From a virus: a stretch of DNA of 64,000 nt. Under the pieces are notes generated by a model. The model ran no database searches. It was given only the letters and a program-made list of their open reading frames with translations, and was not told where the DNA came from. Below are positions 3-50,358 of the stretch, piece by piece; position 1 is the first letter of the stretch; each line of letters begins with the position of its first letter. The translations under genes and the position numbers were made by a program. Location: the IMG/VR virus record IMGVR_UViG_3300022822_000014, positions 26,406 through 90,405 of that record; one strand, 5' to 3'.

Positions 3-326
3 GCAGGAAATTTAGAAAAAACCAGATTAAGAAAAGAAGACCCTGCATTTAGAGCAAGGTTCACCAAAGTTATGTCAGAATGCATGAAGAAACAGTTTCT
101 AGAGGGAAAACGAACATCTTTTAACATAGGACAGTGGATAGGAAAAAAACACACAGAAGCGACTAAGCTAAAAATGAGTAAATCAGCATCAAACAAACCA
201 CCTGAACAGAATTCACAATTCGGCACATGTTGGATAACTAATGAAGTTGAAAGCAAAAAGATTAAAAAAGGCGATGATATTACAGAAGGTTGGAGATTAG
301 GACGAATAGTGAATATCGTGGCGTAA
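3..326 (+). CDS. Homing endonuclease-like protein, C-terminal part (5' end outside window)
   Basis: The frame is open from the first bases of the window, so the gene begins upstream; the first internal ATG is at 72. The visible part contains a NUMOD3-like segment (IGKKHTEATKLKMSKSAS) followed by the tail motif FGTCWITN...GWRLGR. This tail is common at the C terminus of phage GIY-YIG/HNH homing endonucleases. The catalytic domain is not in view, so the nuclease class is unknown. It sits directly before the tRNA cluster, which carries two more endonuclease genes. Confidence 0.6.
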   Translation, partial: AGNLEKTRLRKEDPAFRARFTKVMSECMKKQFLEGKRTSFNIGQWIGKKHTEATKLKMSKSASNKPPEQNSQFGTCWITNEVESKKIKKGDDITEGWRLGRIVNIVA

Positions 327-410
327 GCCCCATTAGTACGACGATATAAAATAAACGAGAAAGGGCGAAAGCACACTAGCTAGAAGGTGTAAGTAGCAAC
401 GAAGGGATAT

Positions 411-486
411 GGAATTTTTGTGTAGATGGTTCGCACGCTAGTCTGAAGAACTAGAGGAGAAGGTTCGATTCCTTCAGATTCCACCA
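411..486 (+). tRNA. tRNA-Phe(GAA)
   Basis: All four arms can be drawn. Acceptor GGAATTT pairs with AGATTCC; D stem GTGT/GCAC; anticodon stem CTAGT/ACTAG with loop CTGAAGA (anticodon 445-447); T stem GAAGG/CCTTC. The CCA end is encoded at 484-486. Confidence 0.9.
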
Positions 487-491
487 TTATA

Positions 492-572
492 TTACGATGC
501 AGGTGCGTTGACTGTTCCATTGGCAGTACCGGTAGATATACCCAATGAAGGTTCGAGTCCTTTAATCGTAAC
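492..572 (+). tRNA. tRNA of unresolved isotype, possibly with a long variable arm
   Basis: A T arm (loop TTCGAGT) is followed by an acceptor strand ATCGTAA that pairs with TTACGAT at 492. The core is not canonical. ACTGT/GCAGT can form an anticodon stem whose loop TCCATTG would give anticodon CAT with C instead of U at position 33. It would be followed by a GGTA/TACC hairpin resembling a class II variable arm. GTA (Tyr) also occurs in the region but without a proper stem. The gene is probably real; its identity is open. Confidence 0.55.
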
Positions 573-591
573 AACTACATCGTAGTTAGTT

Positions 592-635
592 GCTTCTACC
601 CCACAGAACCATAACTGAGAAGCTTATAGAGGGGT
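592..635 (+). ncRNA. Predicted H-type pseudoknot upstream of tRNA-Asn
   Basis: Stem 1 is GCTTCT (592-597) with AGAAGC (618-623). The loop begins ACCCC (598-602), which can pair with GGGGT (631-635) just downstream. A small AACTAC/GTAGTT hairpin lies immediately upstream (573-587). Complementarity is seen in the sequence; that the RNA forms and is functional is inferred from similar arrangements in other tRNA intervals. Confidence 0.4.
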
Positions 636-659
636 GACTAATAGGAGAGACTAAATCCA

Positions 660-736
660 GGGTTGGTAGCTAAGTGGTAAAGCATTTGCCTGTTAAGTAA
701 AAGATTCCGTGGGTTCGACCCCCACCCAACCCTCCA
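660..736 (+). tRNA. tRNA-Asn(GTT)
   Basis: Acceptor GGGTTGG/CCAACCC, D arm GCT/AGC, anticodon stem TTTGC/GTAAA with loop CTGTTAA, T stem GTGGG/CCCAC. The CCA end is encoded (734-736). Confidence 0.9.
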
Positions 737-795
737 ATTAGTTTATAGGAAGTCCTGCCCTTGAGTTCTAGTGATTGTATCAAAAACTCTAAAAA
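737..795 (+). repeat. Inter-tRNA element, copy 1 (pseudoknot-capable)
   Basis: This spacer shares the blocks TAGTTTATAGG, CTTGAGTTCTA and AAAACTCTAAAAA with 4670-4720. ATTAG (737-741) can pair with CTAGT (768-772) and the enclosed GAGTT (763-767) with AACTC (785-789), giving an H-type pseudoknot. In the other copy stem 1 is AATAG/CTATT, so one pair differs on both sides yet still pairs. Each copy directly precedes a tRNA gene (Ile here). Confidence 0.5.
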
Positions 796-801
796 GACCC
801 A

Positions 802-874
802 CGGAGTGTAGCTCAATCGGTAGAGCGTTCGCCTGATACGCGAAAGGTAGTAGGATCGTAACCTACCATTCCGA
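802..874 (+). tRNA. tRNA-Ile(GAT)
   Basis: Acceptor CGGAGTG/CATTCCG, D stem GCTC/GAGC, anticodon stem TTCGC/GCGAA with loop CTGATAC, T stem GTAGG/CCTAC. CCA is not encoded. Confidence 0.9.
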
Positions 875-879
875 CAAAA

Positions 880-965
880 GGAAGATAAACTATGATGGTG
901 ATTAGGGTATCCTGCTAAGATAATCGTGCTATAAAAGGCATTCGGTTCGATTCCGATTTCTTCCT
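880..965 (+). tRNA. tRNA-Ser(GCT)
   Basis: Acceptor GGAAGAT/TTCTTCC has one T-T mismatch at the base. The anticodon loop CTGCTAA is closed by TATC/GATA. A long variable region (about 923-940), expected for tRNA-Ser, precedes a T arm with loop TTCGATT. Confidence 0.82.
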
Positions 966-971
966 CAAAAT

Positions 972-1043
972 ACTAATATAGCTCAATGGTAGAGCGGCTC
1001 TTTCATACGGAGTAGGTTGATGGTTCGATTCCATCTATTGGTA
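972..1043 (+). tRNA. tRNA-Met(CAT) or tRNA-Ile2(CAT)
   Basis: Acceptor ACTAATA/TATTGGT, D stem GCTC/GAGC, anticodon loop TTCATAC, T stem GATGG/CCATC. It is one of three clear CAT tRNAs in the cluster. Elongator Met, initiator Met and lysidine-dependent Ile2 cannot be told apart from sequence alone. Confidence 0.85.
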
Positions 1044-1093
1044 CTATATTTAAAACCGCTCGGGTTCAAACATAGAAATATGTGGAGGATAAT

Positions 1094-1157
1094 TCAGTCA
1101 CCCGCACCTCGTAAGAGACAACTATAGACTGACACGTAAGGAAAGTGGGAGCCTTAC
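1094..1157 (+). ncRNA. Predicted pseudoknot/kissing structure upstream of tRNA-His
   Basis: TCAGTC (1094-1099) pairs with GACTGA (1127-1132). Its loop starts with CCCGC (1101-1105), complementary with one wobble to GTGGG (1145-1149). That GTGGG is itself presented in the loop of a GTAAGG/CCTTAC hairpin (1136-1157). The layout resembles that at 592-635. The whole interval 1044-1163 has no ORF or tRNA. Confidence 0.4.
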
Positions 1158-1163
1158 AAACAT

Positions 1164-1235
1164 GGTGTTTGTAGTTCAATGGTAGAATGTTTGACTGTGA
1201 ATCAAAAGACGAAGGATCGATACCTTCCTTACACC
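1164..1235 (+). tRNA. tRNA-His(GTG)
   Basis: Anticodon loop CTGTGAA with stem TTTGA/TCAAA, D arm GTTC/GAAT, T stem GAAGG/CCTTC. G at 1164 faces C at 1235, matching the extra G-1:C73 pair of tRNA-His. The acceptor has two T-T mismatches in its lower half. Confidence 0.85.
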
Positions 1236-1259
1236 CGGTATACTTTTTGAAACAGTTAG

Positions 1260-1268
1260 CTATTTATA
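1260..1268 (+). promoter_or_regulatory. CTATTTATA-class promoter box
   Basis: CTATTTATAATAAA lies 14 bases before the ATG of the homing endonuclease gene at 1283. The same box precedes the genes at 4903, 16441, 27319, 28159 and 54282. A phage-specific (late-type) promoter is inferred from recurrence and position. Confidence 0.5.
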
Positions 1269-1282
1269 ATAAACAAACATAA

Positions 1283-1963
1283 ATGGCTAACTATTCAAAA
1301 AAGAAGAAATACCACTTTACTTATAAAACAACAAATATAATAAACAGTAGATATTACCTAGGAATGCATTCAACTAACCGTATCGATGACGGATATTTAG
1401 GAAGCGGTACAAGACTACGCTACGAAGTAACTAAGTACGGTAGAGACAATTTTAAGGTTGAGATAATTAAGTATTTTAATTCAAGAGAAGACCTAGTTCA
1501 AGCTGAAATGCAGTTAATAACAGAACAGGATCTAAACAGTGTAAACTGCTTAAACTTAATAACAGGAGGAAATGGATTTAGTATAGAAACTTCTAGGTGT
1601 GCAAATGAGATTAGAAAACAGAAATTACAACAGGACGTAGATTGGAGAGAGGCATATATACTAAAACTTAAAGATACAAAAAAAGAGTGGGTAAAAAATC
1701 TAACACAGCAGGACAAAGACACTATCTCTAAAAAAATAAAAAGAGGTCTAAAAAAAAGCGGACATATTCATAACTCTTTTCTAGGAAAAAAACACTCGAA
1801 AGAGACTATACTTAAGATGAAAAAAGCTAAAATAGGACAGGGGTGTGGGAATAAAAACTCACAATACGGAAAACCAAGGAGTGAGGAAACTAAAAAAAAG
1901 ATAAGAGAAAGTCTTAGGAAGACTCGTGAAATGAAAAAAAATGCCCATATGGTGAAACGGTAA
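1283..1963 (+). CDS. GIY-YIG homing endonuclease
   Basis: This 226-residue protein starts with a GIY-YIG-type nuclease fold: FTYKTTN then YYLGMHST at residues 13-30, followed by GYLGSGTRLRYEVTKYG (about 38-54), typical of phage Seg-like enzymes. The C-terminal half has NUMOD3-like DNA-binding repeats (LGKKHSKETILKMKKAK; YGKPRSEETKKKIRES). Such genes spread by cutting cognate sites lacking them. It lies between tRNA-His and tRNA-Leu, and its last seven codons and stop are formed by the 5' end of the tRNA-Leu gene. A CTATTTATA box lies just upstream. Confidence 0.88.
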   Translation: MANYSKKKKYHFTYKTTNIINSRYYLGMHSTNRIDDGYLGSGTRLRYEVTKYGRDNFKVEIIKYFNSREDLVQAEMQLITEQDLNSVNCLNLITGGNGFSIETSRCANEIRKQKLQQDVDWREAYILKLKDTKKEWVKNLTQQDKDTISKKIKRGLKKSGHIHNSFLGKKHSKETILKMKKAKIGQGCGNKNSQYGKPRSEETKKKIRESLRKTREMKKNAHMVKR

Positions 1964-2015
1964 ACACAACAGGTTTAAGCCCTGTAAGCTGTAGGTTCGA
2001 ATCCTACTATGGGTA
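1943..2015 (+). tRNA. tRNA-Leu(TAA), overlaps the endonuclease gene
   Basis: Acceptor GCCCATA/TATGGGT, anticodon stem ACAGG/CCTGT with loop TTTAAGC, T stem GTAGG/CCTAC. The variable loop is only five bases (AAGCT), whereas bacterial tRNA-Leu normally has a long variable arm. Bases 1943-1963 also encode the end of the endonuclease. Confidence 0.85.
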
Positions 2016-2106
2016 CAATAAGGAAGAGCTAGAGAGTCCTAAATGATATCTAAAATCTCCTCGCAGTTTTTAAGATTGGTTTTTTGCTTTAAAAAATCCT
2101 TCAAAT
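2016..2106 (+). other. Inter-tRNA spacer with hairpins
   Basis: The spacer has no ORF or tRNA. AAGGA near 2019 can pair with TCCTT near 2096, enclosing the segment. Inside, an AGGA/TCCT hairpin and a GGTTTTTT...AAAAAATCC hairpin (about 2077-2098) are visible. Structure is plausible but weaker than in neighbouring intervals. Confidence 0.25.
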
Positions 2107-2178
2107 GGCTTTATAGTTTAATGGACAGAACCTTCGGCTACGAACCGAAAAATGGGAGTTCGAATCTCTCTAAAGCCT
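2107..2178 (+). tRNA. tRNA-Arg(ACG)
   Basis: Acceptor GGCTTTA/TAAAGCC, D arm GTTT...GAAC, anticodon stem TTCGG/CCGAA with loop CTACGAA, T arm GGGAG/CTCTC. The A34 would need to become inosine through the host deaminase. Confidence 0.87.
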
Positions 2179-2183
2179 CAACT

Positions 2184-2255
2184 ACCTCCATAGTTAAATG
2201 GACATAACAAAACTCTTCTAAAGTTTAGATCCAAGTTCGATTCTTGGTGGAGGTT
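2184..2255 (+). tRNA. tRNA-Arg(TCT)
   Basis: Acceptor ACCTCCA/TGGAGGT, D stem GTTA/TAAC, anticodon stem AAACT/AGTTT with loop CTTCTAA, T stem CCAAG/CTTGG. It reads AGA/AGG, codons used often in the surrounding AT-rich genes. Confidence 0.88.
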
Positions 2256-2265
2256 CAAACAAAAT

Positions 2266-2334
2266 GCTTCTCGGGCTAAGGTAGCCAAATAGTCTCCAAA
2301 ACTATAGGACAAGGTTCGATTCCTTGGGGTTGCG
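2266..2334 (+). tRNA. tRNA-Trp(CCA)
   Basis: Anticodon stem ATAGT/ACTAT with loop CTCCAAA, D arm GCT/AGC, T stem CAAGG/CCTTG. The acceptor GCTTCTC/GGGTTGC carries two T-T mismatches, like the neighbouring tRNA-His. Confidence 0.75.
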
Positions 2335-2359
2335 CAAACATTAACTTAATTATTAACTC

Positions 2360-2869
2360 ATGAAAAATCGTTATGACAAAACACTAGTGGTTGATTCAAG
2401 CTACATTGCAAGAAGCATCATTACTACCGAAAGAGCTTTCGTGATTTCGTATAAAGGTAATGCTGATGTAGTAGTTGAACACCCTGAAACATTTGGAGTT
2501 GTAAACCCCAAACTAGAAATTTTTAAACCATCTGTTATTAGAGTCTACACTTATGTAAAACTAGAATACCAGAAAGTAGCTCTAACAAGAGATAATGTAT
2601 TTAAAAGAGATGGACATGAATGCGTATACTGCGGTTGTAATAACAGAAAAACACTTACATTAGATCACGTAGTACCACAATCAAAAGGAGGACCAAACAC
2701 TTGGGATAACTTAGTAACTGCTTGTAAAGTTTGTAATAACGAAAAAGCAAATTTAACATTAAAAGAATACGGTAGGGAAATACCTAAACCAAAAAGACCA
2801 CACTACTTAATGTTATTAAAGAAAACAAGTTTTATACCTGAAGAGTGGAAACCTTACCTATTATTCTAG
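2360..2869 (+). CDS. HNH endonuclease
   Basis: This 169-residue protein has a classic HNH nuclease core: a zinc pair CVYCGC (about 89-94), the metal-binding motif LDHVVPQSKGG (about 102-112), then WDNLVTACKVCNNEK (about 116-130). The N-terminal 70 residues are a beta-rich region common in small bacterial HNH proteins. A free-standing gene inside a phage tRNA cluster is probably mobile (homing). It sits between tRNA-Trp and tRNA-Cys; the stop is seven bases before tRNA-Cys. Confidence 0.9.
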   Translation: MKNRYDKTLVVDSSYIARSIITTERAFVISYKGNADVVVEHPETFGVVNPKLEIFKPSVIRVYTYVKLEYQKVALTRDNVFKRDGHECVYCGCNNRKTLTLDHVVPQSKGGPNTWDNLVTACKVCNNEKANLTLKEYGREIPKPKRPHYLMLLKKTSFIPEEWKPYLLF

Positions 2870-2875
2870 GTAGAT

Positions 2876-2945
2876 GAGTGAGTTGTTCTTGGAGAACAGT
2901 TGGTTTGCAAAACCAATAGAGTAGGTTCGATTCCTACCTTACTCT
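2876..2945 (+). tRNA. tRNA-Cys(GCA)
   Basis: Acceptor GAGTGAG/CTTACTC, D arm GTTC/GAAC, anticodon stem TTGGT/ACCAA with loop TTGCAAA, T stem GTAGG/CCTAC. Confidence 0.88.
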
Positions 2946-2985
2946 CAAAAATAAACATAAAAAAATTAGGATATACAGTAAATAG

Positions 2986-2997
2986 TTCGTATATTTA
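2986..2997 (+). promoter_or_regulatory. Host-like promoter box inside the tRNA cluster
   Basis: TTCGTATATTTA is identical to the box upstream of many protein genes here (for example 21043 and 62560). It lies about 40 bases before tRNA-Leu(TAG) and probably starts transcription of the second half of the RNA cluster. Confidence 0.5.
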
Positions 2998-3037
2998 TAT
3001 ATAATAAAGATAGGTTCATTGACATATTGGATAAATT

Positions 3038-3110
3038 GCTCGTGTGGTGGAATGGTATACACGGCCGTCTTAGAAACGGTCTTTTGCAGGTTCGAGTCCT
3101 GCCATGAGTA
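3038..3110 (+). tRNA. tRNA-Leu(TAG)
   Basis: Acceptor GCTCGTG/CATGAGT, D arm GTG/CAC, anticodon stem GCCGT/ACGGT with loop CTTAGAA, T stem GCAGG/CCTGC. As with tRNA-Leu(TAA), the variable loop is short (CTTTT). Confidence 0.87.
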
Positions 3111-3127
3111 CAAAAACTGTTCGAGTA

Positions 3128-3164
3128 CTAATTATGACTTATCACTCTAATTAGGAAGTAGTGG
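3128..3164 (+). ncRNA. Predicted H-type pseudoknot after tRNA-Leu(TAG)
   Basis: CTAATTA (3128-3134) pairs perfectly with TAATTAG (3148-3154). TCACT (3142-3146) in the loop can pair with AGTGG (3160-3164) five bases downstream of stem 1. Confidence 0.42.
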
Positions 3165-3252
3165 GCAAATATATTAAAGGTTATTAATCAATAAACTACC
3201 TAGAATAGTTCTGATACTGGACTTGAGATTAAAGCGGTTGGATCCCGAAGTG

Positions 3253-3304
3253 TTAACAGGTTTATAAGGGTAAGCTAAGTTACTGTTAGTGCAAAATTAT
3301 AGCT
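3253..3304 (+). ncRNA. Predicted pseudoknot overlapping a tRNA-like acceptor
   Basis: TTAACAG (3253-3259) pairs with CTGTTAG (3283-3289). AGCTA (3273-3277) in the loop is complementary to TAGCT (3300-3304). TAGCT is also the 5' acceptor strand of the tRNA-like element at 3301, so the two folds would compete. The interval 3165-3252 has no gene; a small AACTA/TAGTT hairpin lies in it. Confidence 0.35.
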
Positions 3305-3403
3305 GTGAAATCATTGGTTGATAGCACCTCTCCAGGGTTAAGTTTAACGATAAGTTCACTTAGAATTGTAAAGCCGGATTAGGTTCGAATCCTAACATAG
3401 CTA
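3301..3403 (+). ncRNA. tRNA-like element with an oversized core (103 nt)
   Basis: The 3' part is a normal T arm (TTAGG/CCTAA, loop TTCGAAT) followed by acceptor CATAGCT, which pairs with AGCTGTG at 3301-3307. The 71 bases between do not give a clear D arm plus anticodon arm. ATAGCACC followed by TCTCC recalls the D/anticodon boundary of a normal tRNA, after which about 30 extra bases follow. It may be a tRNA with an insertion, a decayed tRNA or a tRNA mimic. Confidence 0.4.
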
Positions 3404-3415
3404 CAAAATTAAAAT

Positions 3416-3568
3416 GGTCCTATATATAGTAGTGGATCGCTCCTACTACTATCAGTGGGATAACGTTACGGCTTTTGGTTTAACACTTCTTATACTAGTT
3501 TGAAGAGAAAAGTTAAAACATTAGAGTAAGTAACTTATCAAAGGTTGGTTCGATTCCAACTAGGGCTA
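3416..3568 (+). ncRNA. tRNA-like element with an oversized core (153 nt) and internal pseudoknot
   Basis: GGTCCTA (3416-3422) pairs over seven positions with TAGGGCT (3561-3567), next to a good T arm (GTTGG/CCAAC, loop TTCGATT). The interior holds ATAGTAG (3426-3432) pairing with CTACTAT (3446-3452), while TCCTA (3441-3445) can pair with TGGGA (3456-3460). No canonical anticodon arm is visible. A tmRNA is unlikely at this size. Confidence 0.4.
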
Positions 3569-3576
3569 CAAAATAC

Positions 3577-3630
3577 AAGTTAGACGTTCGAAGGAGAACT
3601 TAAAAGGTATTCAAACCACCATTCTAACTT
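3577..3630 (+). ncRNA. Stem-closed inter-tRNA segment
   Basis: AAGTTAGA (3577-3584) pairs perfectly with TCTAACTT (3623-3630). A GTTC/GAAC hairpin and a weak GGT/ACC hairpin lie inside. Noncoding. Confidence 0.35.
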
Positions 3631-3637
3631 ATAATAT

Positions 3638-3736
3638 TAAGAGAGTTAGTGAAGCTAGGACAAGCTGGAATAGGATAAAGGTTTATCCCCAGTCCCAGAT
3701 ATTTCTAGAAACCTCGAAAGACCCGAAGCTCTCTTA
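3638..3736 (+). ncRNA. Stem-closed inter-tRNA RNA before tRNA-Thr (about 99 nt)
   Basis: TAAGAGAG (3638-3645) pairs perfectly with CTCTCTTA (3729-3736). Inside, CTGG...CCAG encloses GGATAA/TTATCC (3673-3688), whose loop AGGTTT could pair with AAACCT (3709-3714). The interior also carries CCCGAAG, a heptamer that recurs near 3244 and at 3956. Confidence 0.42.
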
Positions 3737-3741
3737 TATTT

Positions 3742-3813
3742 GCCTCTAAAGCATAAATGGTAATGTGCCCGGTTTGTACCCGGAGGAACAGGGTTCGATT
3801 CCTTGTAGAGGCT
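3742..3813 (+). tRNA. tRNA-Thr(TGT)
   Basis: Acceptor GCCTCTA/TAGAGGC, anticodon loop TTTGTAC closed by CCGG/CCGG, T stem CAGGG/CCTTG. Confidence 0.86.
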
Positions 3814-3814
3814 C

Positions 3815-3873
3815 AAAAGTAAATTAACCTCGCTTAACGATAATATCACCGAGGGAGGTCAATGTTTACTTTT
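3815..3873 (+). ncRNA. Stem-closed spacer between tRNA-Thr and tRNA-Gly
   Basis: AAAAGTAAA (3815-3823) pairs perfectly with TTTACTTTT (3865-3873). ACCTC pairs with GAGGT and CCTCG with CGAGG inside. It fills the whole spacer between the two tRNAs. Confidence 0.42.
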
Positions 3874-3876
3874 AAT

Positions 3877-3948
3877 GCGAATATAGTATAGTGGCTATTA
3901 TGTCTGGCTTCCAACCAGAGGACGAGAGTTCGATTCTCTCTATTCGCT
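3877..3948 (+). tRNA. tRNA-Gly(TCC)
   Basis: Acceptor GCGAATA/TATTCGC, anticodon stem TCTGG/CCAGA with loop CTTCCAA, T stem GAGAG/CTCTC. Confidence 0.9.
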
Positions 3949-3955
3949 CGAACAG

Positions 3956-4031
3956 CCCGAAGTACAAGGGAACGAAGATAGAGATTACAGATATGAGTTG
4001 AAATAACAAATACCTTCGGGTACACTCATAT
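3956..4031 (+). ncRNA. Strong predicted H-type pseudoknot after tRNA-Gly
   Basis: CCCGAAG (3956-3962) pairs perfectly with CTTCGGG (4014-4020). ATATGAGT (3991-3998) inside the loop pairs perfectly with ACTCATAT (4024-4031), three bases beyond stem 1. This is the clearest of the cluster pseudoknots (7 and 8 pairs, no mismatch). The stretch 4032-4102 has no recognised feature. Confidence 0.5.
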
Positions 4032-4102
4032 AGGCGTGGATGCTCTCCAAATCGTAGGTTGGTACAGTTGGTAACTCTGGGAATATTACAAAAGTTACAA
4101 AT

Positions 4103-4174
4103 GCTCCTGTCGACAACTGGCTAAGTCACTACCCTTTCACGGTAGAGTAGAGGGATCGATACCCTCCAGGAGTA
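4103..4174 (+). tRNA. tRNA-Glu(TTC)
   Basis: Acceptor GCTCCTG/CAGGAGT, anticodon stem CTACC/GGTAG with loop CTTTCAC, T stem GAGGG/CCCTC. Confidence 0.87.
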
Positions 4175-4179
4175 CTTTT

Positions 4180-4371
4180 ATTAAAAATTCTTTGCTTAAA
4201 GATAGACATAGTGAAAGCATTCCCTGATAGAAAAGGCGAGAAAGACCACAATTGAAAGTGGATAGCTATAGACTGTATCAGCAGTTGTGTTTATTGTAAA
4301 GGTATTGGTGATTAGGTTCATAGCGTTAAGAGCGTGATATTACACTGAAATTTGTACAAAGAGTTTTTAAT
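4180..4371 (+). ncRNA. Structured noncoding RNA, about 190 nt, closed by a 15-pair stem
   Basis: ATTAAAAATTCTTTG (4180-4194) pairs with CAAAGAGTTTTTAAT (4357-4371) over 15 positions with a single wobble. Inside, CTGATA/TATCAG form a stem containing a CCAC/GTGG hairpin, and the sequence GCTAT in that loop can pair with ATAGC further on, again a pseudoknot. There is no ORF, T arm or anticodon. It exactly fills the gap between tRNA-Glu and tRNA-Ala. I do not recognise the family; RNase P RNA and tmRNA hallmarks are absent. Confidence 0.5.
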
Positions 4372-4376
4372 AATTT

Positions 4377-4449
4377 GGGGATATGGTGAAATTGGCTATC
4401 ATAGTAGATTTGCATTCTACTGTTCCGAGTTCGAGCCTCGGTTTCTCCA
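4377..4449 (+). tRNA. tRNA-Ala(TGC)
   Basis: Acceptor GGGGATA/TTTCTCC with one mismatch, anticodon stem GTAGA/TCTAC with loop TTTGCAT, T stem CCGAG/CTCGG. Confidence 0.87.
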
Positions 4450-4462
4450 CGAGATATCTACC

Positions 4463-4519
4463 CTAGGTAGGTGTTTTACTCAAGGTTTTATTGGTTGTAC
4501 CTCAACAACCAATACCTAG
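4463..4519 (+). ncRNA. Nested stem segment between tRNA-Ala and tRNA-Asp
   Basis: CTAGGT (4463-4468) pairs with ACCTAG (4514-4519), enclosing a nine-pair hairpin ATTGGTTGT/ACAACCAAT (4490-4513). The outer 3' strand shares two bases with tRNA-Asp. Confidence 0.42.
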
Positions 4520-4589
4520 CTTCATAGTTAAACGGCTATAATGTCGCCCTGTCACGGCGAAGTTCGGAGTTCGATTCTCCGTGGAGCTG
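4518..4589 (+). tRNA. tRNA-Asp(GTC)
   Basis: Acceptor AGCTTCA/TGGAGCT, D stem GTTA/TAAT, anticodon stem TCGCC/GGCGA with loop CTGTCAC, T stem CGGAG/CTCCG. Confidence 0.88.
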
Positions 4590-4595
4590 CATATT

Positions 4596-4664
4596 GCGGT
4601 TTGGTGTAATTGGTAGCATGAGGGGCTCATAACCCCAAGGCGAGGTTCGAGTCCTTAATCCGCT
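4596..4664 (+). tRNA. tRNA with anticodon CAT (Met, fMet or Ile2)
   Basis: Acceptor GCGGTTT/AATCCGC has a T-T mismatch. The anticodon loop CTCATAA is closed by GGGG/CCCC; T loop TTCGAGT. The ends are uncertain by one base; shifting the 3' end by one would give an encoded CCA at 4666-4668. Confidence 0.75.
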
Positions 4665-4669
4665 TCCAA

Positions 4670-4720
4670 AATAGTTTATAGGTCGTTCTGTCCTTGAGTT
4701 CTATTTCAAAACTCTAAAAA
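4670..4720 (+). repeat. Inter-tRNA element, copy 2 (pseudoknot-capable)
   Basis: Second copy of the element at 737-795. AATAG (4670-4674) pairs with CTATT (4701-4705), GAGTT (4696-4700) with AACTC (4710-4714). It again sits directly upstream of a tRNA gene. Confidence 0.5.
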
Positions 4721-4726
4721 AGGCTA

Positions 4727-4801
4727 GGTCATGTAGCTAAGTTTGGTAAGGCAGCTCGCTCATAACGAGAAGATTCATAGGTTCGAATCCTATCATGACC
4801 A
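4727..4801 (+). tRNA. tRNA with anticodon CAT (Met, fMet or Ile2)
   Basis: Acceptor GGTCATG/CATGACC, anticodon stem CTCG/CGAG with loop CTCATAA, T stem ATAGG/CCTAT. Last gene of the cluster. Confidence 0.85.
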
Positions 4802-4868
4802 CATTTAATTTTATCCAATAAGTTAAACATTGAAATACCTTTAAAAAACAGATAACATTAGTTTCTTC

Positions 4869-4877
4869 CTATTTATA
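4869..4877 (+). promoter_or_regulatory. CTATTTATA-class promoter box
   Basis: CTATTTATACTAAA lies 25 bases upstream of the first probable virion gene at 4903. It is the same box as at 54253, including the following CTAAA. Confidence 0.55.
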
Positions 4878-4902
4878 CTAAATAAGTTAACTAAATAGTA
4901 TT

Positions 4903-5511
4903 ATGCATATAATATATAAAGATAAAGAGGAAGATTTTGAATGTAAAATAGCGGTTGAAGGAGCAGACTTAAGTAACGCCAAAGCGCGTTTAATATTGGA
5001 AAATAACAACCAAAGTTTACTTTTTAACGGAATAATTGACTCCGAAGGGAACTGCAAAGTCCATTTAGGAAAATTAAAAGTACTTCCGGAACACTTAAAA
5101 GGAACATTAAAACTAGAAGTAATTGTAGATGAAGACACCTACTTTGTACCCTACCAAGATGAATTTGTCTTAGAAGTTAGTAAGAAAGTTACTGTAGAGG
5201 TAGTAAATAAAAGAGAGTCCCCAATTAGTAAAAAGAAAGTCACAGTAGAAATAGCTCAAAAACCCAATAAATTAGTTGAAAGGAAGTATACAGACAATAA
5301 GGCAGAAAACCAAAATTGGACTTTGGCAGTACTAGAAGCCCGCAAGGTACTATCAGGAGAGAAAATAAAAGAATTTAAACCTGAAGTAAGAAACCGCATA
5401 TCACAGGAGATAGTAAAAGAAATTGCAAACAAATACAAAATACCCACTTCAAAAATATCAGAATTTAAATTAAAAGTAATACGAGAATTAACAGAACCGA
5501 AAAAGAAATAA
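4903..5511 (+). CDS. Hypothetical protein, probably virion-associated
   Basis: This 202-residue protein is not recognised. The N-terminal 95 residues look like a beta-sandwich (alternating hydrophobics, LKLEVIVDEDTYFVPYQDEF). A lysine-rich linker (residues 100-135) leads to a helical C-terminal domain. It follows a CTATTTATA box and is the first gene of a run of tail-fibre-like genes (5521-8962), so a structural role is inferred from context only. Confidence 0.45.
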   Translation: MHIIYKDKEEDFECKIAVEGADLSNAKARLILENNNQSLLFNGIIDSEGNCKVHLGKLKVLPEHLKGTLKLEVIVDEDTYFVPYQDEFVLEVSKKVTVEVVNKRESPISKKKVTVEIAQKPNKLVERKYTDNKAENQNWTLAVLEARKVLSGEKIKEFKPEVRNRISQEIVKEIANKYKIPTSKISEFKLKVIRELTEPKKK

Positions 5512-9006: not shown

Positions 9007-10674
9007 ATGATACAATTAGGTATATCTGCTTTTTATCACAATTCAGCAGCCTGTCTGGTTAAAGACGGTAAAGTTCTATATGCTGTAGAAGAAGAAAGGT
9101 TTACAGAAATAAAACATGATGCTTCCTTCCCGATCAACTCAATTAAATGGTTACTTAAAGAATCAGGAATAAAACTAACAGACATAGATGAAGTTTGTTG
9201 GTATGAAAACCCAGATAAAAAGAAAAATAGGGTAGTTACTACGTTTAAAAAAAGACCAATTAGTACATTTTTTCAAAAACGTAAATTTCTTAAAGAACAA
9301 GAAGCCAATTCACCAAAAACCCTTTTACAGAATATCGGATATACCGGTAAAATTTCATATACCGATCATCACCTCTCCCATGCAGCTTTCACCTATTATA
9401 CCTCAAATTTTCAAACCTCTGCAATATTAACAATAGACGGAGTAGGGGAATGGGCTACAGCAACAATCGCTGAAGGTAGAGGGGATAGAATTTACAACCA
9501 TTTATCAATTAATTTCCCTAATTCTCTAGGAATGTTTTACTCAACCTTTACAGCCTACTTGGGATTCAAACCTAATGAAGGAGAGTATAAGGTAATGGGT
9601 CTTGCACCATATGGAGATTCAAGTCAATTTAAAGACAAGCTTAAAAGTATCTTTTTCACTACAGATAATAAATTCTGGATAGATCAGAAGTATTTTACAT
9701 GGGAATACTCAGATAAAATAATGTTTAATAAAAATCTATGCCGGTTACTGGGCATTCCCCCCCGTCTGCCGGAAGAACCTATAACCCATGAACATCAAAA
9801 CTTAGCAGCAGCTTTGCAAGAGGTATATGAAGAGAGATTTCTTGTATTAGTAGAAAAAGCTAAACTTATCACAGGATCTGAAAATTTATGTATAGGAGGA
9901 GGATGTGCTTATAATGGAGTAGCAAACTTTAAAGCATATAAATACTTTAAACATTTACATATACCATTTGCACCCTCTGATGCAGGTTCAGCCATAGGAG
10001 CGTGTCTCTACCAATATGAAGGAAAGAGCCAAGAGAACTCATCCCCTTACTTAGGCCCAGAGTACACAGACACGGAGGTAAAGAGAGAACTTAGAAAATA
10101 TGAAGATAGGGTACTTTCATTTCATCTTACGGATGAAAAGATTATTAAAAAAACAGCTGAACTTTTAATTGCACAAAATATAGTAGCATGGTTTCAAGGT
10201 CAAATGGAATTTGGAGCAAGAGCATTAGGAAATAGATCTATATTAGCTTCTCCTGCAAATCCTAAAATGAGAGAAAAGCTTAATTATGTAATTAAAAAAA
10301 GAGAAGGTTTTAGACCATTTGCACCTTCAGTATTAGAGGAAGACGGAAATAAATGGTTCGGGACAACAGAACCAGTCCCTTATATGAACGTAGTCTCTTT
10401 TGCTAGAACATCACACAATGTAATCCCCTTCCCCGCTGCCACCCATATAAATAAAACTTGCAGAGTACAGACAGTAAGTAAAAAGCAAAATGAAAAATAT
10501 TATAATCTACTATCGGAAATGAAAAGAGTAACAGGAGCAGGAGTACTGTTAAATACTTCTTTTAATTTAAAGGACCAGACAATCACTATGTCACCTAAAC
10601 AAGCCATAGAGAGATTTATAGATTCAGAAATAAACTACCTGGTAATAAATAATTTTTTAATCAAGAAGATATGA
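9007..10674 (+). CDS. Carbamoyltransferase (NodU/CmcH/TobZ family)
   Basis: This 555-residue protein would transfer a carbamoyl group from carbamoyl phosphate to a hydroxyl of a sugar or nucleoside, via carbamoyl-adenylate. The ASKHA-fold N-terminal domain is clear: LGISAFYHNSAACLVKDG (2-20), EEERFTEIKHDASFP, DHHLSHAA (about 121-128, metal ligands), IDGVGEWAT, and EYKVMGLAPYG (about 198-208). The C-terminal YrdC-like half has GQMEFGARALGNRSILA (about 399-415) and REGFRPFAPSVL. Length matches the family. In a phage it may decorate a virion glycan or a modified base. It overlaps the next small gene by ATGA. Confidence 0.92.
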   Translation: MIQLGISAFYHNSAACLVKDGKVLYAVEEERFTEIKHDASFPINSIKWLLKESGIKLTDIDEVCWYENPDKKKNRVVTTFKKRPISTFFQKRKFLKEQEANSPKTLLQNIGYTGKISYTDHHLSHAAFTYYTSNFQTSAILTIDGVGEWATATIAEGRGDRIYNHLSINFPNSLGMFYSTFTAYLGFKPNEGEYKVMGLAPYGDSSQFKDKLKSIFFTTDNKFWIDQKYFTWEYSDKIMFNKNLCRLLGIPPRLPEEPITHEHQNLAAALQEVYEERFLVLVEKAKLITGSENLCIGGGCAYNGVANFKAYKYFKHLHIPFAPSDAGSAIGACLYQYEGKSQENSSPYLGPEYTDTEVKRELRKYEDRVLSFHLTDEKIIKKTAELLIAQNIVAWFQGQMEFGARALGNRSILASPANPKMREKLNYVIKKREGFRPFAPSVLEEDGNKWFGTTEPVPYMNVVSFARTSHNVIPFPAATHINKTCRVQTVSKKQNEKYYNLLSEMKRVTGAGVLLNTSFNLKDQTITMSPKQAIERFIDSEINYLVINNFLIKKI

Positions 10675-23989: not shown

Positions 23990-25630
23990 ATGAGTAAGAA
24001 TATAACATTTTCAAAAGAAGCAAGGAATAAACTTGCAGCCGGAGTAGATAAATTAGCAAATGCAGTAACATCTACATTAGGACCTTCAGGTCGAAACGTT
24101 ATTATAGAACAAGACAACGGCTTGCCGGTATCTACTAAAGATGGTGTGACTGTAGCAAAGTCCATTACATTAAAAGACAAGGTAGAAAATTTAGGAGCAC
24201 AGATTGTGAAACAAGCAGCAATTAAAACAGGAGAACAGGCCGGAGATGGTACTACTACCTCCACCCTACTAGCTCAATCAATTCTATCAGAAGGATTAGA
24301 CCGAATCAAACTAGGATCTAACTCAGTAGAAATTAAAAGAGGAATTGATAAAGCAGTAAAAGAAGTTGTAGAGTTTCTTGAAGGAGAATCTAAAGAGATC
24401 ACGGACGAAGAACAGTTAAAACAGGTCGCTACTATATCAGCAAACAACGACACTGAAGTTGGTGAGCTAATTGCAACAGCAATGGATAAAGTAGGACGTG
24501 ATGGTGTTATCACAATCGAAGAATCAAAAACAGGAGAAACGTATTTAGAAACGGTTGAGGGTGTTCAATTCAACAGGGGTTATAAGTCTCCGTACTTTGT
24601 TACAGATAATAGCACTATGACAGCTGTTCTTCAAGATCCGTTGATACTAATCACAGATAAACGACTAAATCAAATCAAAGAGTTACTACCTGTCTTAGAA
24701 GGCGTTTCACAACAAACTAAGTCTCTTCTTATTATTGCAGAAGATATAGACGGAGAGGCACTCTCTACCCTAGTAGTAAACAAGATGAGAGGTATTCTTA
24801 ATTGTGCTGTAGTAAAAGCTCCTGAATTTGGGGATAGAAGAAAAGCAATGTTAGAAGATATCGCCACCCTTACAGGAGGAAAAGTAATATCAACTGAAAA
24901 AGGAATGAGACTGGATAAATTTCAACCAGACTGGTTAGGTAAAGCAGGCAAGATCACTATTACAAAAGATACGACTACAATCATCGATGCAAAAGGAGAC
25001 GAAGAAGCAATCAATATAAGAGTAGAAGAAATTAAAACTCAAATTGATGAAACAACATCTCCTTATGAGAAAGAGAAATTACAGGAGAGATTATCTACCT
25101 TTATTGGAGGTGTCGCAATTGTACATGTAGGAGGACATACTGAGGTAGAGATGAAAGAGAAAAAAGATAGAGTAGATGACGCTTTACACGCAACCAAAGC
25201 AGCTTTAGAAGAAGGTATTGTGCCCGGTGGAGGAATTGCATTATTAAATGCTTCTAAGATGTTAGTATCAAAACTTGAAGATGTAGAAGGTGATGAAGCA
25301 GTGGGCTATGAGATTATAGTAAGCGCTATCGAAAGACCGTTCTATAAGATATTAGAAAATGCAGGATACGATCATGATAGGATTGGGGATATTGAAGAAG
25401 CAATTATAGAGAAAAACGACTTCTGGCAAGGGTATAATCCCAGAACAGTAACACTAGTAGATATGTTTAACAGTGGAATTATCGATCCAGCTAAAGTAAC
25501 TAGACTAGCATTAGAAAATGCAGCATCTGTTGCAGGAACGTTATTAATAACTGAGGCAGTAGTCTCAAACGGAAAAGAGAAAAAAAACAATGATATGGGA
25601 GGGATAGATCCTAACATGCTATTAGGTTAA
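23990..25630 (+). CDS. groEL: GroEL chaperonin (60 kDa)
   Basis: 546 residues, full length. Equatorial and ATP-binding motifs: [13 protein letters not shown] (about 29-41), [11 protein letters not shown] (about 48-58), [17 protein letters not shown] (about 79-95, catalytic Asp). The signature [15 protein letters not shown] lies near 405. Intermediate and apical domains are intact ([21 protein letters not shown]). The C terminus ends [13 protein letters not shown] instead of the GGM repeats. It forms one transcription unit with groES. It probably folds a phage protein that the host machine handles poorly. Confidence 0.95.
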
Positions 25631-47475: not shown

Positions 47476-47841
47476 ATGGTGGAATACAAAGTAGAAGTTT
47501 CAGAGTACAGTACAAGATGGTATAGTTCAAAAGATCAGCTACACAGAGAAGACGGACCTGCAGTAGAGTGTATAAACGGAACTAAATATTACTACATTAA
47601 TGATAAACTTCATAGAGAAGATGGACCCGCTATAGAGTATGCAGATGGAAGTAAACATTACTACATTAATGATAAACGTCATAGAGAGGACGGACCTGCT
47701 ATAGAGTGGTCAAATGGAGATAAATATTACTATATTGATGATAAAGCTTTAACCGAAGAAGAATTTAATAATAGAAACAAATCTTATCAAAATAAGATTG
47801 TAGACATTGAAGGAATTAAATATAAACTATCTAAGGTATAG
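47476..47841 (+). CDS. HREDGPA-repeat protein 4 (3 repeats)
   Basis: 121 residues, starts MVEYKVEVSEYSTRWYSSKDQ, three repeats. The N cap is closest to copy 10 (EVSEHSTRWYNSKDQ). Confidence 0.72.
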   Translation: MVEYKVEVSEYSTRWYSSKDQLHREDGPAVECINGTKYYYINDKLHREDGPAIEYADGSKHYYINDKRHREDGPAIEWSNGDKYYYIDDKALTEEEFNNRNKSYQNKIVDIEGIKYKLSKV

Positions 47842-47845
47842 AGTT

Positions 47846-48280
47846 ATGAAAGAATATAAAGTAAAAGTATATAGTGACAGAACAGAATGGTATAACTTAG
47901 AAGGTCAACTACACAGAGAAGATGGTCCCACTATAGAGTGTTCAAACGGATATAAATCTTACTATGTTAATGGTAAATACCACAGAGAAGATGGACCTGC
48001 TGTAGAGTGGGCAAATGGAAGTAAGTTTTACTACATTAATGACAAACGCCACAGAGAGGACGGGCCTGCTGTAGAGTGGCCAAACGGATATAAGGACTAC
48101 TATATAAACGATAAACTTCATAGAGAAGATGGGCCTGCTATGGAGTGGCCAAACGGAGATAAACATTACTACATAAACGGGAAGTGTCTAACTAAAAAAG
48201 AATTTGACAATAGAACCAAATCTTGTGAAAATAAGATTGTAGAGATTGAAGGAGTAAAGTATAAACTAACTAAGGTATAG
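47846..48280 (+). CDS. HREDGPA-repeat protein 5 (4 repeats)
   Basis: 144 residues, four repeats; its C-terminal cap is nearly identical to that of copy 3, suggesting recombination between copies. Followed by a nine-codon frame (48285-48314) and an unrelated gene. Confidence 0.72.
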   Translation: MKEYKVKVYSDRTEWYNLEGQLHREDGPTIECSNGYKSYYVNGKYHREDGPAVEWANGSKFYYINDKRHREDGPAVEWPNGYKDYYINDKLHREDGPAMEWPNGDKHYYINGKCLTKKEFDNRTKSCENKIVEIEGVKYKLTKV

Positions 48281-48317
48281 AGTTATGAAATTTAAAGACA
48301 TTAAATTCAAATAAATA

Positions 48318-48800
48318 ATGTACTGGTTTAAAAGAAAATACACACAAATAAAAAGAACCCTATCATTCCTCCCAATTATTTGGAAGGGATATGACAGGGA
48401 TTATATGTACGCAATAGATTTATTCAAACACCAACTTGGAAGGTTAGCAACTACCTTAGAAGGCGAAACAGCATACGGTTTAGATTCTCTTTTAAAAGCC
48501 CAACGCATAAGAACCACAATTAGACTATTAGATAAGGTCTACGATGATTTTTATGGATGTGAATATCAATCTAAAATAGAAAAAATTTACGGTGAAGATG
48601 TATATTATTTTGAATTTGAAGATAACGGTAAAGGAGATGATTCAGGATATTTAAAGCATAAATACGAATATTGGAACAATGCAGATGAAATCAGAGAATT
48701 AAATCAATTCCTTTTTCACGAATCAAATACAAAACAAAAGAAAGCCCATCGCATTCTTTGGAAATATATAGAACATAATATACAGTCATGGTGGGATTAA
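48318..48800 (+). CDS. Hypothetical protein inserted in the repeat array
   Basis: 160 residues, unrelated to the repeat proteins. Starts YWFKRKYTQIKRTLSFLPIIWKG and contains YDRDYMYAIDLFKHQLGRLA and a Lys-rich C-terminal helix (KKAHRILWKYIEHNIQSWWD). Related-looking proteins occur in phages; role unknown. It divides the array into 5 + 7 copies. Confidence 0.55.
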   Translation: MYWFKRKYTQIKRTLSFLPIIWKGYDRDYMYAIDLFKHQLGRLATTLEGETAYGLDSLLKAQRIRTTIRLLDKVYDDFYGCEYQSKIEKIYGEDVYYFEFEDNGKGDDSGYLKHKYEYWNNADEIRELNQFLFHESNTKQKKAHRILWKYIEHNIQSWWD

Positions 48801-48813
48801 TAAATAAAAGATT

Positions 48814-49179
48814 ATGAAAGAATATAAAGTAAAGGTATATAATAACAGTACAAAATGGTTTAACTTAGAAGGTAAACTTCATAGAGAGGACGGACCTGCT
48901 GTAGAGTGGGCAAATGGAGATAAATCTTACTACCTTAATGGTAAACACCACCGGGAAAATGGTCCTGCTGTAGAAATTAAAGATGGAACTAAATATTACT
49001 ACATAAACGGTAAATTTCATAGAGAAGATGGCCCTGCAGTAGAGTGGCCAAACGGATATAAGTCATACTATATTAATGGTATGGAATTAACCCAAGAAGA
49101 ATTCAATAACAGAAACAAATCTTGCATAGACAAAATTGTAGAAATTGAAGGAGTTAAATATAAACTAACTAAGGTATAG
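48814..49179 (+). CDS. HREDGPA-repeat protein 6 (3 repeats)
   Basis: 121 residues. The first 60 residues are almost the same as those of copy 11 (NNSTKWFNLEGKLHREDGPA), a sign of recent duplication. One repeat has HRENGPAVEIKDG, also present in copy 8. Confidence 0.72.
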   Translation: MKEYKVKVYNNSTKWFNLEGKLHREDGPAVEWANGDKSYYLNGKHHRENGPAVEIKDGTKYYYINGKFHREDGPAVEWPNGYKSYYINGMELTQEEFNNRNKSCIDKIVEIEGVKYKLTKV

Positions 49180-49183
49180 AGTT

Positions 49184-49618
49184 ATGAAAGAATATAAAGT
49201 AAAGGTATATAGTGACAGAATAGAATGGTACAACTTAAAAGGTCAACTCCACAGAGAAGAGGGACCTGCTGTAGAGTATGCAAACGGATATAAGGCGTAC
49301 TACATAAACGGGAAACGACATAGAGAAGACGGTCCTGCTATTGAATATAGAGATGGAGCTAAAGCTTATTACATTAATGATAAACGTCATAGAGAAGATG
49401 GTCCTGCTATTGAACATGCAGATGGAGGTAAATGGTACTACATTAACGGTAAACCACATAGAGAAGATGGCCCTGCTATTGAACATGCAGATGGAGGTAA
49501 ATGGTACTTCATTAACGATAAAGCTTTAACCGAAGAAGAATTCAATAATAAGCACAAATCCTGTGAAAATAAGGTGGTAGAAATTGAAGGTATTAAATAT
49601 AAACTAACTAAGGTATAG
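49184..49618 (+). CDS. HREDGPA-repeat protein 7 (4 repeats)
   Basis: 144 residues, four repeats; two adjacent repeats are near-identical (EHADGGKWY(Y/F)IN), consistent with a very recent repeat duplication at 49400-49520. Confidence 0.72.
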   Translation: MKEYKVKVYSDRIEWYNLKGQLHREEGPAVEYANGYKAYYINGKRHREDGPAIEYRDGAKAYYINDKRHREDGPAIEHADGGKWYYINGKPHREDGPAIEHADGGKWYFINDKALTEEEFNNKHKSCENKVVEIEGIKYKLTKV

Positions 49619-49622
49619 AGTT

Positions 49623-49988
49623 ATGAAAGAATATAAAGTAAAGGTATATAGTGACAGAATAGAATGGTACAACTTAAAAGGTCAACTCCATAGAGAGGAT
49701 GGGCCAGCATCAGAGAACGCAGACGGAGATAAATGTTACTACATTAATGGTAAACGCCACCGGGAAAATGGTCCTGCTGTAGAAATTAAAGACGGTTTTA
49801 AATTTTACTATATTAATGATAAACTTCATAGAGAAGATGGCCCTGCTATTGAACATGCAGATGGAGGTAAATGGTACTTCATTAACGATAAATTATTAAC
49901 CGAAGAAGAATTCAACAACAGAAACAAATCTTGCATAGACAAGATTGTAGAAATTGAAGGAGTTAAATATAAACTAACTAAGGTATAG
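49623..49988 (+). CDS. HREDGPA-repeat protein 8 (3 repeats)
   Basis: 121 residues, three repeats. N cap identical to copy 7 (VYSDRIEWYNLKGQ) and last repeat identical to that of copy 7 (EHADGGKWYFIND), pointing to gene conversion. Confidence 0.72.
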   Translation: MKEYKVKVYSDRIEWYNLKGQLHREDGPASENADGDKCYYINGKRHRENGPAVEIKDGFKFYYINDKLHREDGPAIEHADGGKWYFINDKLLTEEEFNNRNKSCIDKIVEIEGVKYKLTKV

Positions 49989-49992
49989 AGTT

Positions 49993-50358
49993 ATGAAAGA
50001 ATACAAAGTAAAAGTACATAATGACAGAACAGACTGGTATAACTTAGAAGGTCAACGCCACAGAGAAGAGGGACCTGCTGTAGAATATGCAGACGGATAT
50101 AAGGCGTACTACATAAACGGGAAACGACATAGAGAAGATGGGCCTGCTATAGAGTGGGCAGACGGAGATAAATATTACTACATAAACGGTAAATTTCATA
50201 GAGAAGATGGTCCTGCTATAGAGTATGCAGATGGAAGTAAACATTACTACATTAATGATATACAGATAACCAAAGAAAAATTTGACAATAGAAACAAATC
50301 TTGCATAGACAAGATTATAGAAATTGAAGGAGTTAAATATAAACTATCTAAAGTATAG
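49993..50358 (+). CDS. HREDGPA-repeat protein 9 (3 repeats)
   Basis: 121 residues, three repeats, N cap HNDRTDWYNLEGQRHREEGPA. C cap has the variant DIQITKEKFDNRNKSC. Confidence 0.72.
   Translation: MKEYKVKVHNDRTDWYNLEGQRHREEGPAVEYADGYKAYYINGKRHREDGPAIEWADGDKYYYINGKFHREDGPAIEYADGSKHYYINDIQITKEKFDNRNKSCIDKIIEIEGVKYKLSKV

What the first reader, a model, noticed from the sequence alone, without database searches (positions are those of the whole stretch)
411..4801. Repeated pseudoknot-capable RNAs between phage tRNA genes
At least seven tRNA intervals hold two-stem pseudoknot-type complementarity, several perfect: 592-635, 737-789, 1094-1157, 3128-3164, 3426-3460 (within a tRNA-like element), 3956-4031 and 4670-4714; 3253-3304 and the 190-nt RNA at 4180 may add more. 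Some intervals share motifs (CCCGAAG three times; GTGGG as the downstream strand several times). tRNA spacers in phages are usually short and featureless. These may be processing signals, exonuclease blocks, tRNA mimics or a family of small regulatory RNAs.
Basis: partly seen in the sequence, partly recalled or inferred. Interest (0 to 1): 0.8.

Follow-up and report, generated by a model that had tools for sequence, protein, structure and literature searches.

The report
RNA cassettes in phage tRNA arrays
Between the transfer-RNA genes of this virus of Flavobacterium-like bacteria sits a string of small folded RNAs, of about 14 different kinds, most of which recur in other uncultured viruses, are missing from the RNA family database and have no known function.

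Summary
The tRNA intervals are not featureless: they hold a modular string of conserved structured RNAs, about 15 units of 14 kinds in the window. Most recur in other viral contigs, nearly always beside tRNA genes, with whole units gained or lost. None matches Rfam. Intervals 737-789 and 4670-4714 are copies of one family (A): 19 distinct sequences share a hairpin with three covarying pairs. A was not found in 199 genomes of one bacterial family or in 50,697 phage records.

The pseudoknot claim holds only in part. That at 3426-3460 is well supported: its first helix covaries at 5 of 5 pairs in 11 versions, inside a tRNA-like RNA. That at 3128-3164 is supported by four sequences. In A the crossing helix is unproven. 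The most perfect case, 3956-4031, is contradicted by relatives. Double-stem counts alone barely exceed shuffles.

So this is not one pseudoknot family but many RNA cassettes, comparable to T4 RNAC/RNAD and GOLLD/ROOL. Best explanation: RNAs co-transcribed with the tRNAs, freed by tRNA processing and acting in trans, perhaps as decoys for host RNA-targeting factors. Expression and function are inferred.

The parts
318..410 (+). RNA unit F5, about 95 nt, ends directly before tRNA-Phe
   Evidence: 4 distinct sequences; 6 hits, all beside tRNAs; no Rfam match
492..572 (+). tRNA-like RNA TL0: acceptor and anticodon-like stems change in step between relatives, T-arm, long variable arm, no recognisable D-stem
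   Evidence: 15 distinct sequences; 28 hits, all beside tRNAs; no Rfam tRNA match
573..659 (+). RNA unit with the perfect double stem 592-635 (GCUUCU/AGAAGC and ACCCC/GGGGU)
   Evidence: two near-identical sequences only; shuffle P 0.015; untested by covariation
739..801 (+). Element A, copy 1 (long-loop version), between tRNA-Asn and tRNA-Ile; helix 763-767/785-789
   Evidence: CM R1 63.0 bits, E 6.9e-13; covariation
1045..1164 (+). RNA unit P1094; covarying hairpin 1094-1099/1127-1132, conserved hairpin 1136-1141/1152-1157 with loop AAAGUGGGAG
   Evidence: 11 distinct sequences; 18 hits, all beside tRNAs
3112..3300 (+). RNA of about 185 nt; contains the crossing pair CUAAUUA/UAAUUAG (3128-3134/3148-3154) and UCACU/AGUGG (3142-3146/3160-3164)
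   Evidence: three helices with 4, 3 and 2 covarying pairs in 4 sequences
3301..3403 (+). tRNA-like RNA TL1: acceptor, D- and T-stems covary; anticodon arm replaced by a short hairpin with a C-rich loop; extended variable arm
   Evidence: 12 distinct sequences; 16 hits, all beside tRNAs
3416..3568 (+). tRNA-like RNA TL2: acceptor stem and T-arm with an H-type pseudoknot in place of the D-arm (3426-3433/3445-3452 crossing 3437-3440/3455-3458)
   Evidence: S1 5/5 pairs covary in 11 distinct versions; acceptor and T-stem covary
3572..3636 (+). RNA unit P3570, closed by AAGUUAGA/UCUAACUU
   Evidence: 7 distinct sequences; z -2.5
3637..3741 (+). RNA unit P3640, carries the conserved GAAAGACCCGAAG
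   Evidence: 11 distinct sequences; 13 hits, all beside tRNAs
3815..3876 (+). RNA unit P3815, long closing stem
   Evidence: z -4.99, 0 of 200 shuffles; 4 distinct sequences, 8 hits
3950..4102 (+). RNA unit P3950 with a UUCG-capped hairpin at 3991-4031; the proposed pseudoknot is not conserved
   Evidence: alignment
4176..4376 (+). 201-nt RNA, 17-bp closing stem 4178-4194/4357-4373
   Evidence: z -3.05; 5 distinct sequences; 10 hits, all beside tRNAs
4451..4517 (+). RNA unit P4451, two hairpins
   Evidence: z -4.53; relatives
4672..4726 (+). Element A, copy 2 (9-nt loop), between two tRNA-Met genes; helix 4696-4700/4710-4714
   Evidence: CM R1 83.0 bits, E 5.6e-18; covariation
411..4802 (+). 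Stretch holding the 17 ARAGORN tRNA genes with which the RNA units are interleaved (weaker tRNA calls near 880-964 and 2266-2334)

Best explanation
Shown by sequence comparison: the array is a modular string of tRNAs and many distinct, conserved, structured small RNAs of about 55-200 nt. Inferred: the string is transcribed together as a stable-RNA operon, and the tRNA-processing enzymes (RNase P at tRNA 5' ends, RNase Z at 3' ends) cut the tRNAs out, which also frees the RNAs lying between them. Also inferred: the freed RNAs act in trans as exchangeable accessory factors. The likeliest role is to occupy or inhibit host RNA-binding proteins, such as tRNA-cutting defence nucleases or other tRNA- or ribosome-binding factors; the three odd tRNA-like RNAs are the clearest candidate decoys. 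The structured-RNA part alone would deserve about 0.9; the decoy part is the weak step.
For: Conservation and covariation: A, TL2, TL1, 1094 and 3112 units, and F1, a sister family outside the window, with 7 of 8 closing pairs covarying in 49 sequences. Association: 23 of 23 A hits and all hits of most other families lie within 300 nt of a called tRNA, TL2 being lowest at 14 of 20; F1 69 of 71 within 400 nt. Spacer lengths are bimodal: 469 of 0-12 nt, 43 of 13-40 nt, 444 of 41-130 nt. Spacers fold better than control stretches of the same loci: mean z -1.65 against -0.31, P 2e-14. Cassette turnover: the Asn-Ile interval holds A in the window, A and F1 in G002, F1 in G003, nothing in G008. Not seen outside viruses: no CM hit in 199 genomes of one bacterial family, and the genome contigs pattern hits lack the helix and lie in loci without tRNAs. 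A promoter- and boxA-like leader precedes tRNAs in many arrays. A phage tRNA is known to counter a host tRNA nuclease (PMC11455837).
Against: No transcript data, so expression, ends and processing are untested. No binding partner or target is known. The decoy role rests on location, cassette turnover and the tRNA-like members only; families such as A or F1 have no proven likeness to tRNA. A itself does not fold better than shuffles by nested free energy. Records are fragments of uncultured viruses, and the genome search had no positive control.
Confidence: 0.5

Rival explanations
1. The elements are cis-acting tRNA-processing or stability elements: leaders or trailers that help RNase P or RNase Z, or block exonucleases.
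For: A usually begins 2-4 nt after one tRNA and ends at the next; some units have long closing stems.
Against: The same neighbouring tRNAs occur with none, one or two units between them, and one unit stands before different tRNAs. About a third of neighbouring tRNAs are only 0-12 nt apart.
Confidence: 0.12
2. The units are decayed or alternative tRNA genes, kept by chance.
For: TL0, TL1 and TL2 keep acceptor and T-arm.
Against: Helices covary across diverged contigs, which decay would not produce; most units have no tRNA features.
Confidence: 0.05
3. The units are trans-acting regulators by base pairing with host or phage mRNAs.
For: Size and conserved stretches without a proven partner, e.g. 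in the 5' half of A.
Against: No target search was made; conserved folded cores fit protein or ligand binding equally well.
Confidence: 0.2
4. The RNAs are structural or assembly RNAs, like the RNA-only cages formed by GOLLD and ROOL.
For: GOLLD and ROOL also sit near phage tRNA islands (PMC12286853).
Against: The units are far smaller, and none matches the Rfam models of those families.
Confidence: 0.08

Closest known systems
T4 RNAC and RNAD
   Same: Small RNAs of unknown role transcribed from a phage tRNA region (PMC3014915, PMC9697503).
   Different: Two RNAs in T4 against about 15 units here; no sequence comparison with them was made; these phages are related to a Flavobacterium phage.
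GOLLD and ROOL RNAs
   Same: Structured phage RNAs of unknown function, often near tRNA islands (PMC12286853).
   Different: Much larger and cage-forming; the units here are about 55-200 nt and do not match their Rfam models.
tRNA (Rfam RF00005)
   Same: TL0, TL1 and TL2 keep an acceptor stem and T-arm.
   Different: No D-stem in TL0, no normal anticodon arm in TL1, a pseudoknot in place of the D-arm in TL2; none reaches the Rfam tRNA threshold.
Phage tRNAs that evade tRNA-targeting defence
   Same: Phage T5 tRNA-Lys resists the host nuclease AriB of PARIS (PMC11455837).
   Different: That is a working tRNA with an altered anticodon stem-loop; the units here are mostly not tRNAs and no such activity was tested.

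Membership tests
H-type pseudoknot RNA (as claimed for the intervals) | two crossing helices, both kept by compensatory change | tested here: inconclusive
   TL2: S1 covaries 5/5, S2 nearly invariant. 3128: S1 covaries, S2 consistent, 4 sequences (83). A: one helix proven, crossing helix 87% paired and broken in several (61). 3956: contradicted (44).
one repeated RNA family across the intervals | shared alignable sequence and fold between the intervals | tested here: not met
   Only 737-789 and 4670-4714 align; the other units are separate families.
GOLLD / ROOL | match to the Rfam covariance model | tested here: not met
   No match at gathering in the window, none at E<=5 in window 300-5000; in nine related arrays all 150 listed hits are tRNA, 18 lower ones were not listed.
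GOLLD / ROOL | location near phage tRNA genes | tested here: met
   literature
T4 RNAC / RNAD | sequence or structure homology | not tested
   their sequences were not fetched or aligned
T4 RNAC / RNAD | expressed from a phage tRNA region | not testable with these tools
   position met; expression needs RNA data
tRNA (RF00005), for TL0, TL1 and TL2 | match at or above the Rfam threshold | tested here: not met
   no hit at 492-572, 3301-3403 or 3416-3568
tmRNA, for TL2 | detected as tmRNA by ARAGORN or Rfam | tested here: not met

The most novel reading that the evidence does not exclude
Phages of Flavobacterium-like bacteria and their relatives carry, inside their tRNA arrays, an exchangeable arsenal of dozens of unrelated small RNAs that are released by tRNA processing and each block or decoy a different host RNA-targeting factor: an RNA counterpart of anti-defence gene islands.
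Probability: 0.2. Interest if true: 0.93.

Novelty: new variant of a known kind. Interest (0 to 1): 0.7.

Why it matters
Phage tRNA arrays are usually read as tRNAs and nothing else. Here the intervals hold many conserved, covarying RNA families missing from Rfam, so standard annotation overlooks them. They offer a ready set of well-bounded RNAs to test for roles in infection, and the turnover of whole units suggests that different hosts or defences select for different sets. If even some act against tRNA-cutting defences, the open question of why phages carry tRNA clusters gains a new, testable part.

Tried and rejected
Perfect double stems as sole evidence: hand-picked intervals look good, unselected spacers barely exceed shuffles. 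Nested folding energy of A: not better than shuffles (z about +0.3); its support is covariation. Element A in bacteria: the 12 genome contigs pattern hits lack the helix and lie in loci without tRNAs; a CM search of 199 genomes was empty, without a positive control in that set. A-like pattern hits in contigs L018, L021 and others: a different upstream sequence and no tRNA nearby, taken as unrelated, probably coding. TL2 pattern scan: 22 of 37 distinct pattern matches lack a T-arm downstream and look unrelated. MAFFT misregistered L075, L183 and the window in the TL2 alignment, so the S1 strands were registered by hand. Further relatives of the 3128 element: none beyond close ones. Cultured phages: no A or F1 match; the fetched stretch of Flavobacterium phage immuto has no A. 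boxA-like motif before rRNA in bacterial genomes: inconclusive, no 16S start or tRNA in the fetched loci. tRNA introns: ARAGORN intron mode gave only implausible calls. A first folding survey timed out and was rerun smaller. An anticodon-stem mimic as a general reading of A was dropped because the loop varies from 7 to about 17 nt.
Full report
Setting. The window is G000:C1:26406-90405 of a 90,405-base virus record. The tRNA array begins about 1.4 kb upstream of the window and ends at 4802; 24 tRNAs are called in L014, 17 of them in the window. The DNA polymerase is 68% identical to that of Flavobacterium phage vB_FspM_immuto_2-6A, so a Flavobacterium-like host is likely.

Check of the observation. 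The complementarities are there, but perfect double stems alone are weak evidence: five of eight intervals reach P 0.005-0.04 against dinucleotide shuffles, while of ten unselected spacers two do, and of 25 control stretches one does.

Element A. The two similar intervals 739-801 and 4672-4726 led to pattern scans of viral contigs. Real copies lie in tRNA arrays, usually 2-4 nt after one tRNA and ending at the next, before Met, Ile, Lys or Phe tRNAs. Nineteen distinct sequences all keep the helix GAGUU/AACUC, in the forms GAGUU/AACUC, GGGUU/AACCC, GCGUU/AACGC, AGAUU/AAUCU and a wobble form GGGUU/AAUCC; three pairs change on both sides. The crossing helix UAUAG/CUAUA pairs in 87% of cells and one of its pairs is broken in four sequences, so a pseudoknot in A is possible, not shown. 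A covariance model finds 25 copies at 48-86 bits in 70 sources with no weak tail, and none in 199 genomes of one bacterial family (no positive control). BLAST finds none in 50,697 phage records.

The element at 3426-3460 lies in a tRNA-like RNA, TL2 (3416-3568), with covarying acceptor and T-stems. The first pseudoknot helix is fully paired in 11 distinct versions, all five pairs covary, and 1 of 5000 shuffles of the 3' strands does as well. These strands were registered by hand. The second helix UCGC/GUGG is almost invariant.

The element at 3128-3164 is part of one RNA at 3112-3300: three helices show 4, 3 and 2 covarying pairs, but only four sequences exist and most of the change lies on one branch.

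Other units. TL1 (3301-3403) keeps covarying acceptor, D- and T-stems but has a short C-rich hairpin where the anticodon arm should be. TL0 (492-572) is tRNA-like without a D-stem. The 1094 unit has a covarying hairpin UCAGUC/GACUGA and a nearly constant hairpin with loop AAAGUGGGAG; the proposed CCC.CAC/GTGGG pairing is not kept. In the 3950 unit, CTTCGGG sits in a UUCG-capped hairpin that relatives keep with changed stems, and two relatives keep CCCGAAG without a partner: that pseudoknot is rejected. The 3815 and 4451 units and the 4176 RNA fold far better than shuffles.

Generality. Arrays of 16 related records were fetched. Spacer lengths are bimodal. There are 231 non-redundant spacers of 45-160 nt; 140 of them, drawn at random, fold better than controls (mean z -1.65 against -0.31, P 2e-14). 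Clustering of 522 distinct spacers gave 96 similarity groups, some of which are coding or leader sequence. A sister family absent from the window, F1, has 71 copies, 69 of them within 400 nt of a tRNA, and 7 of its 8 closing pairs covary. Rfam finds only tRNA in the window; in nine arrays all 150 listed hits are tRNA and 18 lower ones were not listed.

Modularity. Maps of the arrays show whole units gained or lost between fixed tRNAs. The Asn-Ile interval holds A in the window, A and F1 in G002, F1 in G003 and nothing in G008. The Leu-Thr interval holds six profile units in the window (the first two form one RNA), three in G002 and three in G006.

Interpretation. Shown: many distinct conserved structured RNAs interleaved with tRNAs in viral contigs, and modular. 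Inferred: joint transcription, release by RNase P and RNase Z, action in trans. The decoy role is the preferred guess because a phage tRNA is known to counter a tRNA nuclease and three units are odd tRNA-likes; it is not tested.

Known relatives. T4 RNAC and RNAD and GOLLD/ROOL are RNAs of unknown role in or near phage tRNA regions. The present units match no Rfam model. Relation to RNAC and RNAD was not tested. No paper found in the searches describes these families, within an open-access library only.

Noticed in passing
window 2998-3037; L014 11026 and 15419; 42 loci: A leader GTTC(A/T)TTGACATATTGG, resembling a boxA antitermination site, lies within 60 nt before a tRNA in 54 of 55 cases, in 25 behind a TANNTTTG/A promoter-like box.
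   Followed up: partly
window 3142-3164, 3437-3458, 1098-1150: Three otherwise different units share a UCRCY strand followed downstream by AGUGGG, which may be one recurring pseudoknot motif.
   Followed up: partly
window 1283-1963 and 2360-2869: Two ORFs inside the array. The first has a paralogue in the upstream array; the second reads like an HNH endonuclease by its CxxC and DHxxP residues. Families were not searched.
   Followed up: no
L020, L006, L028, L113, L153 (copies of element A): In short-loop copies of A the hairpin is a 5-bp stem with loop CUAUAAA, like an anticodon stem-loop.
   Followed up: no
window 47476-50358: Several neighbouring ORFs of identical length (121 aa) suggest tandem duplicated genes.
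   Followed up: no
window 23990-25630 and 9007-10674: Phage GroEL-like chaperonin and Nol-like carbamoyltransferase.
   Followed up: no
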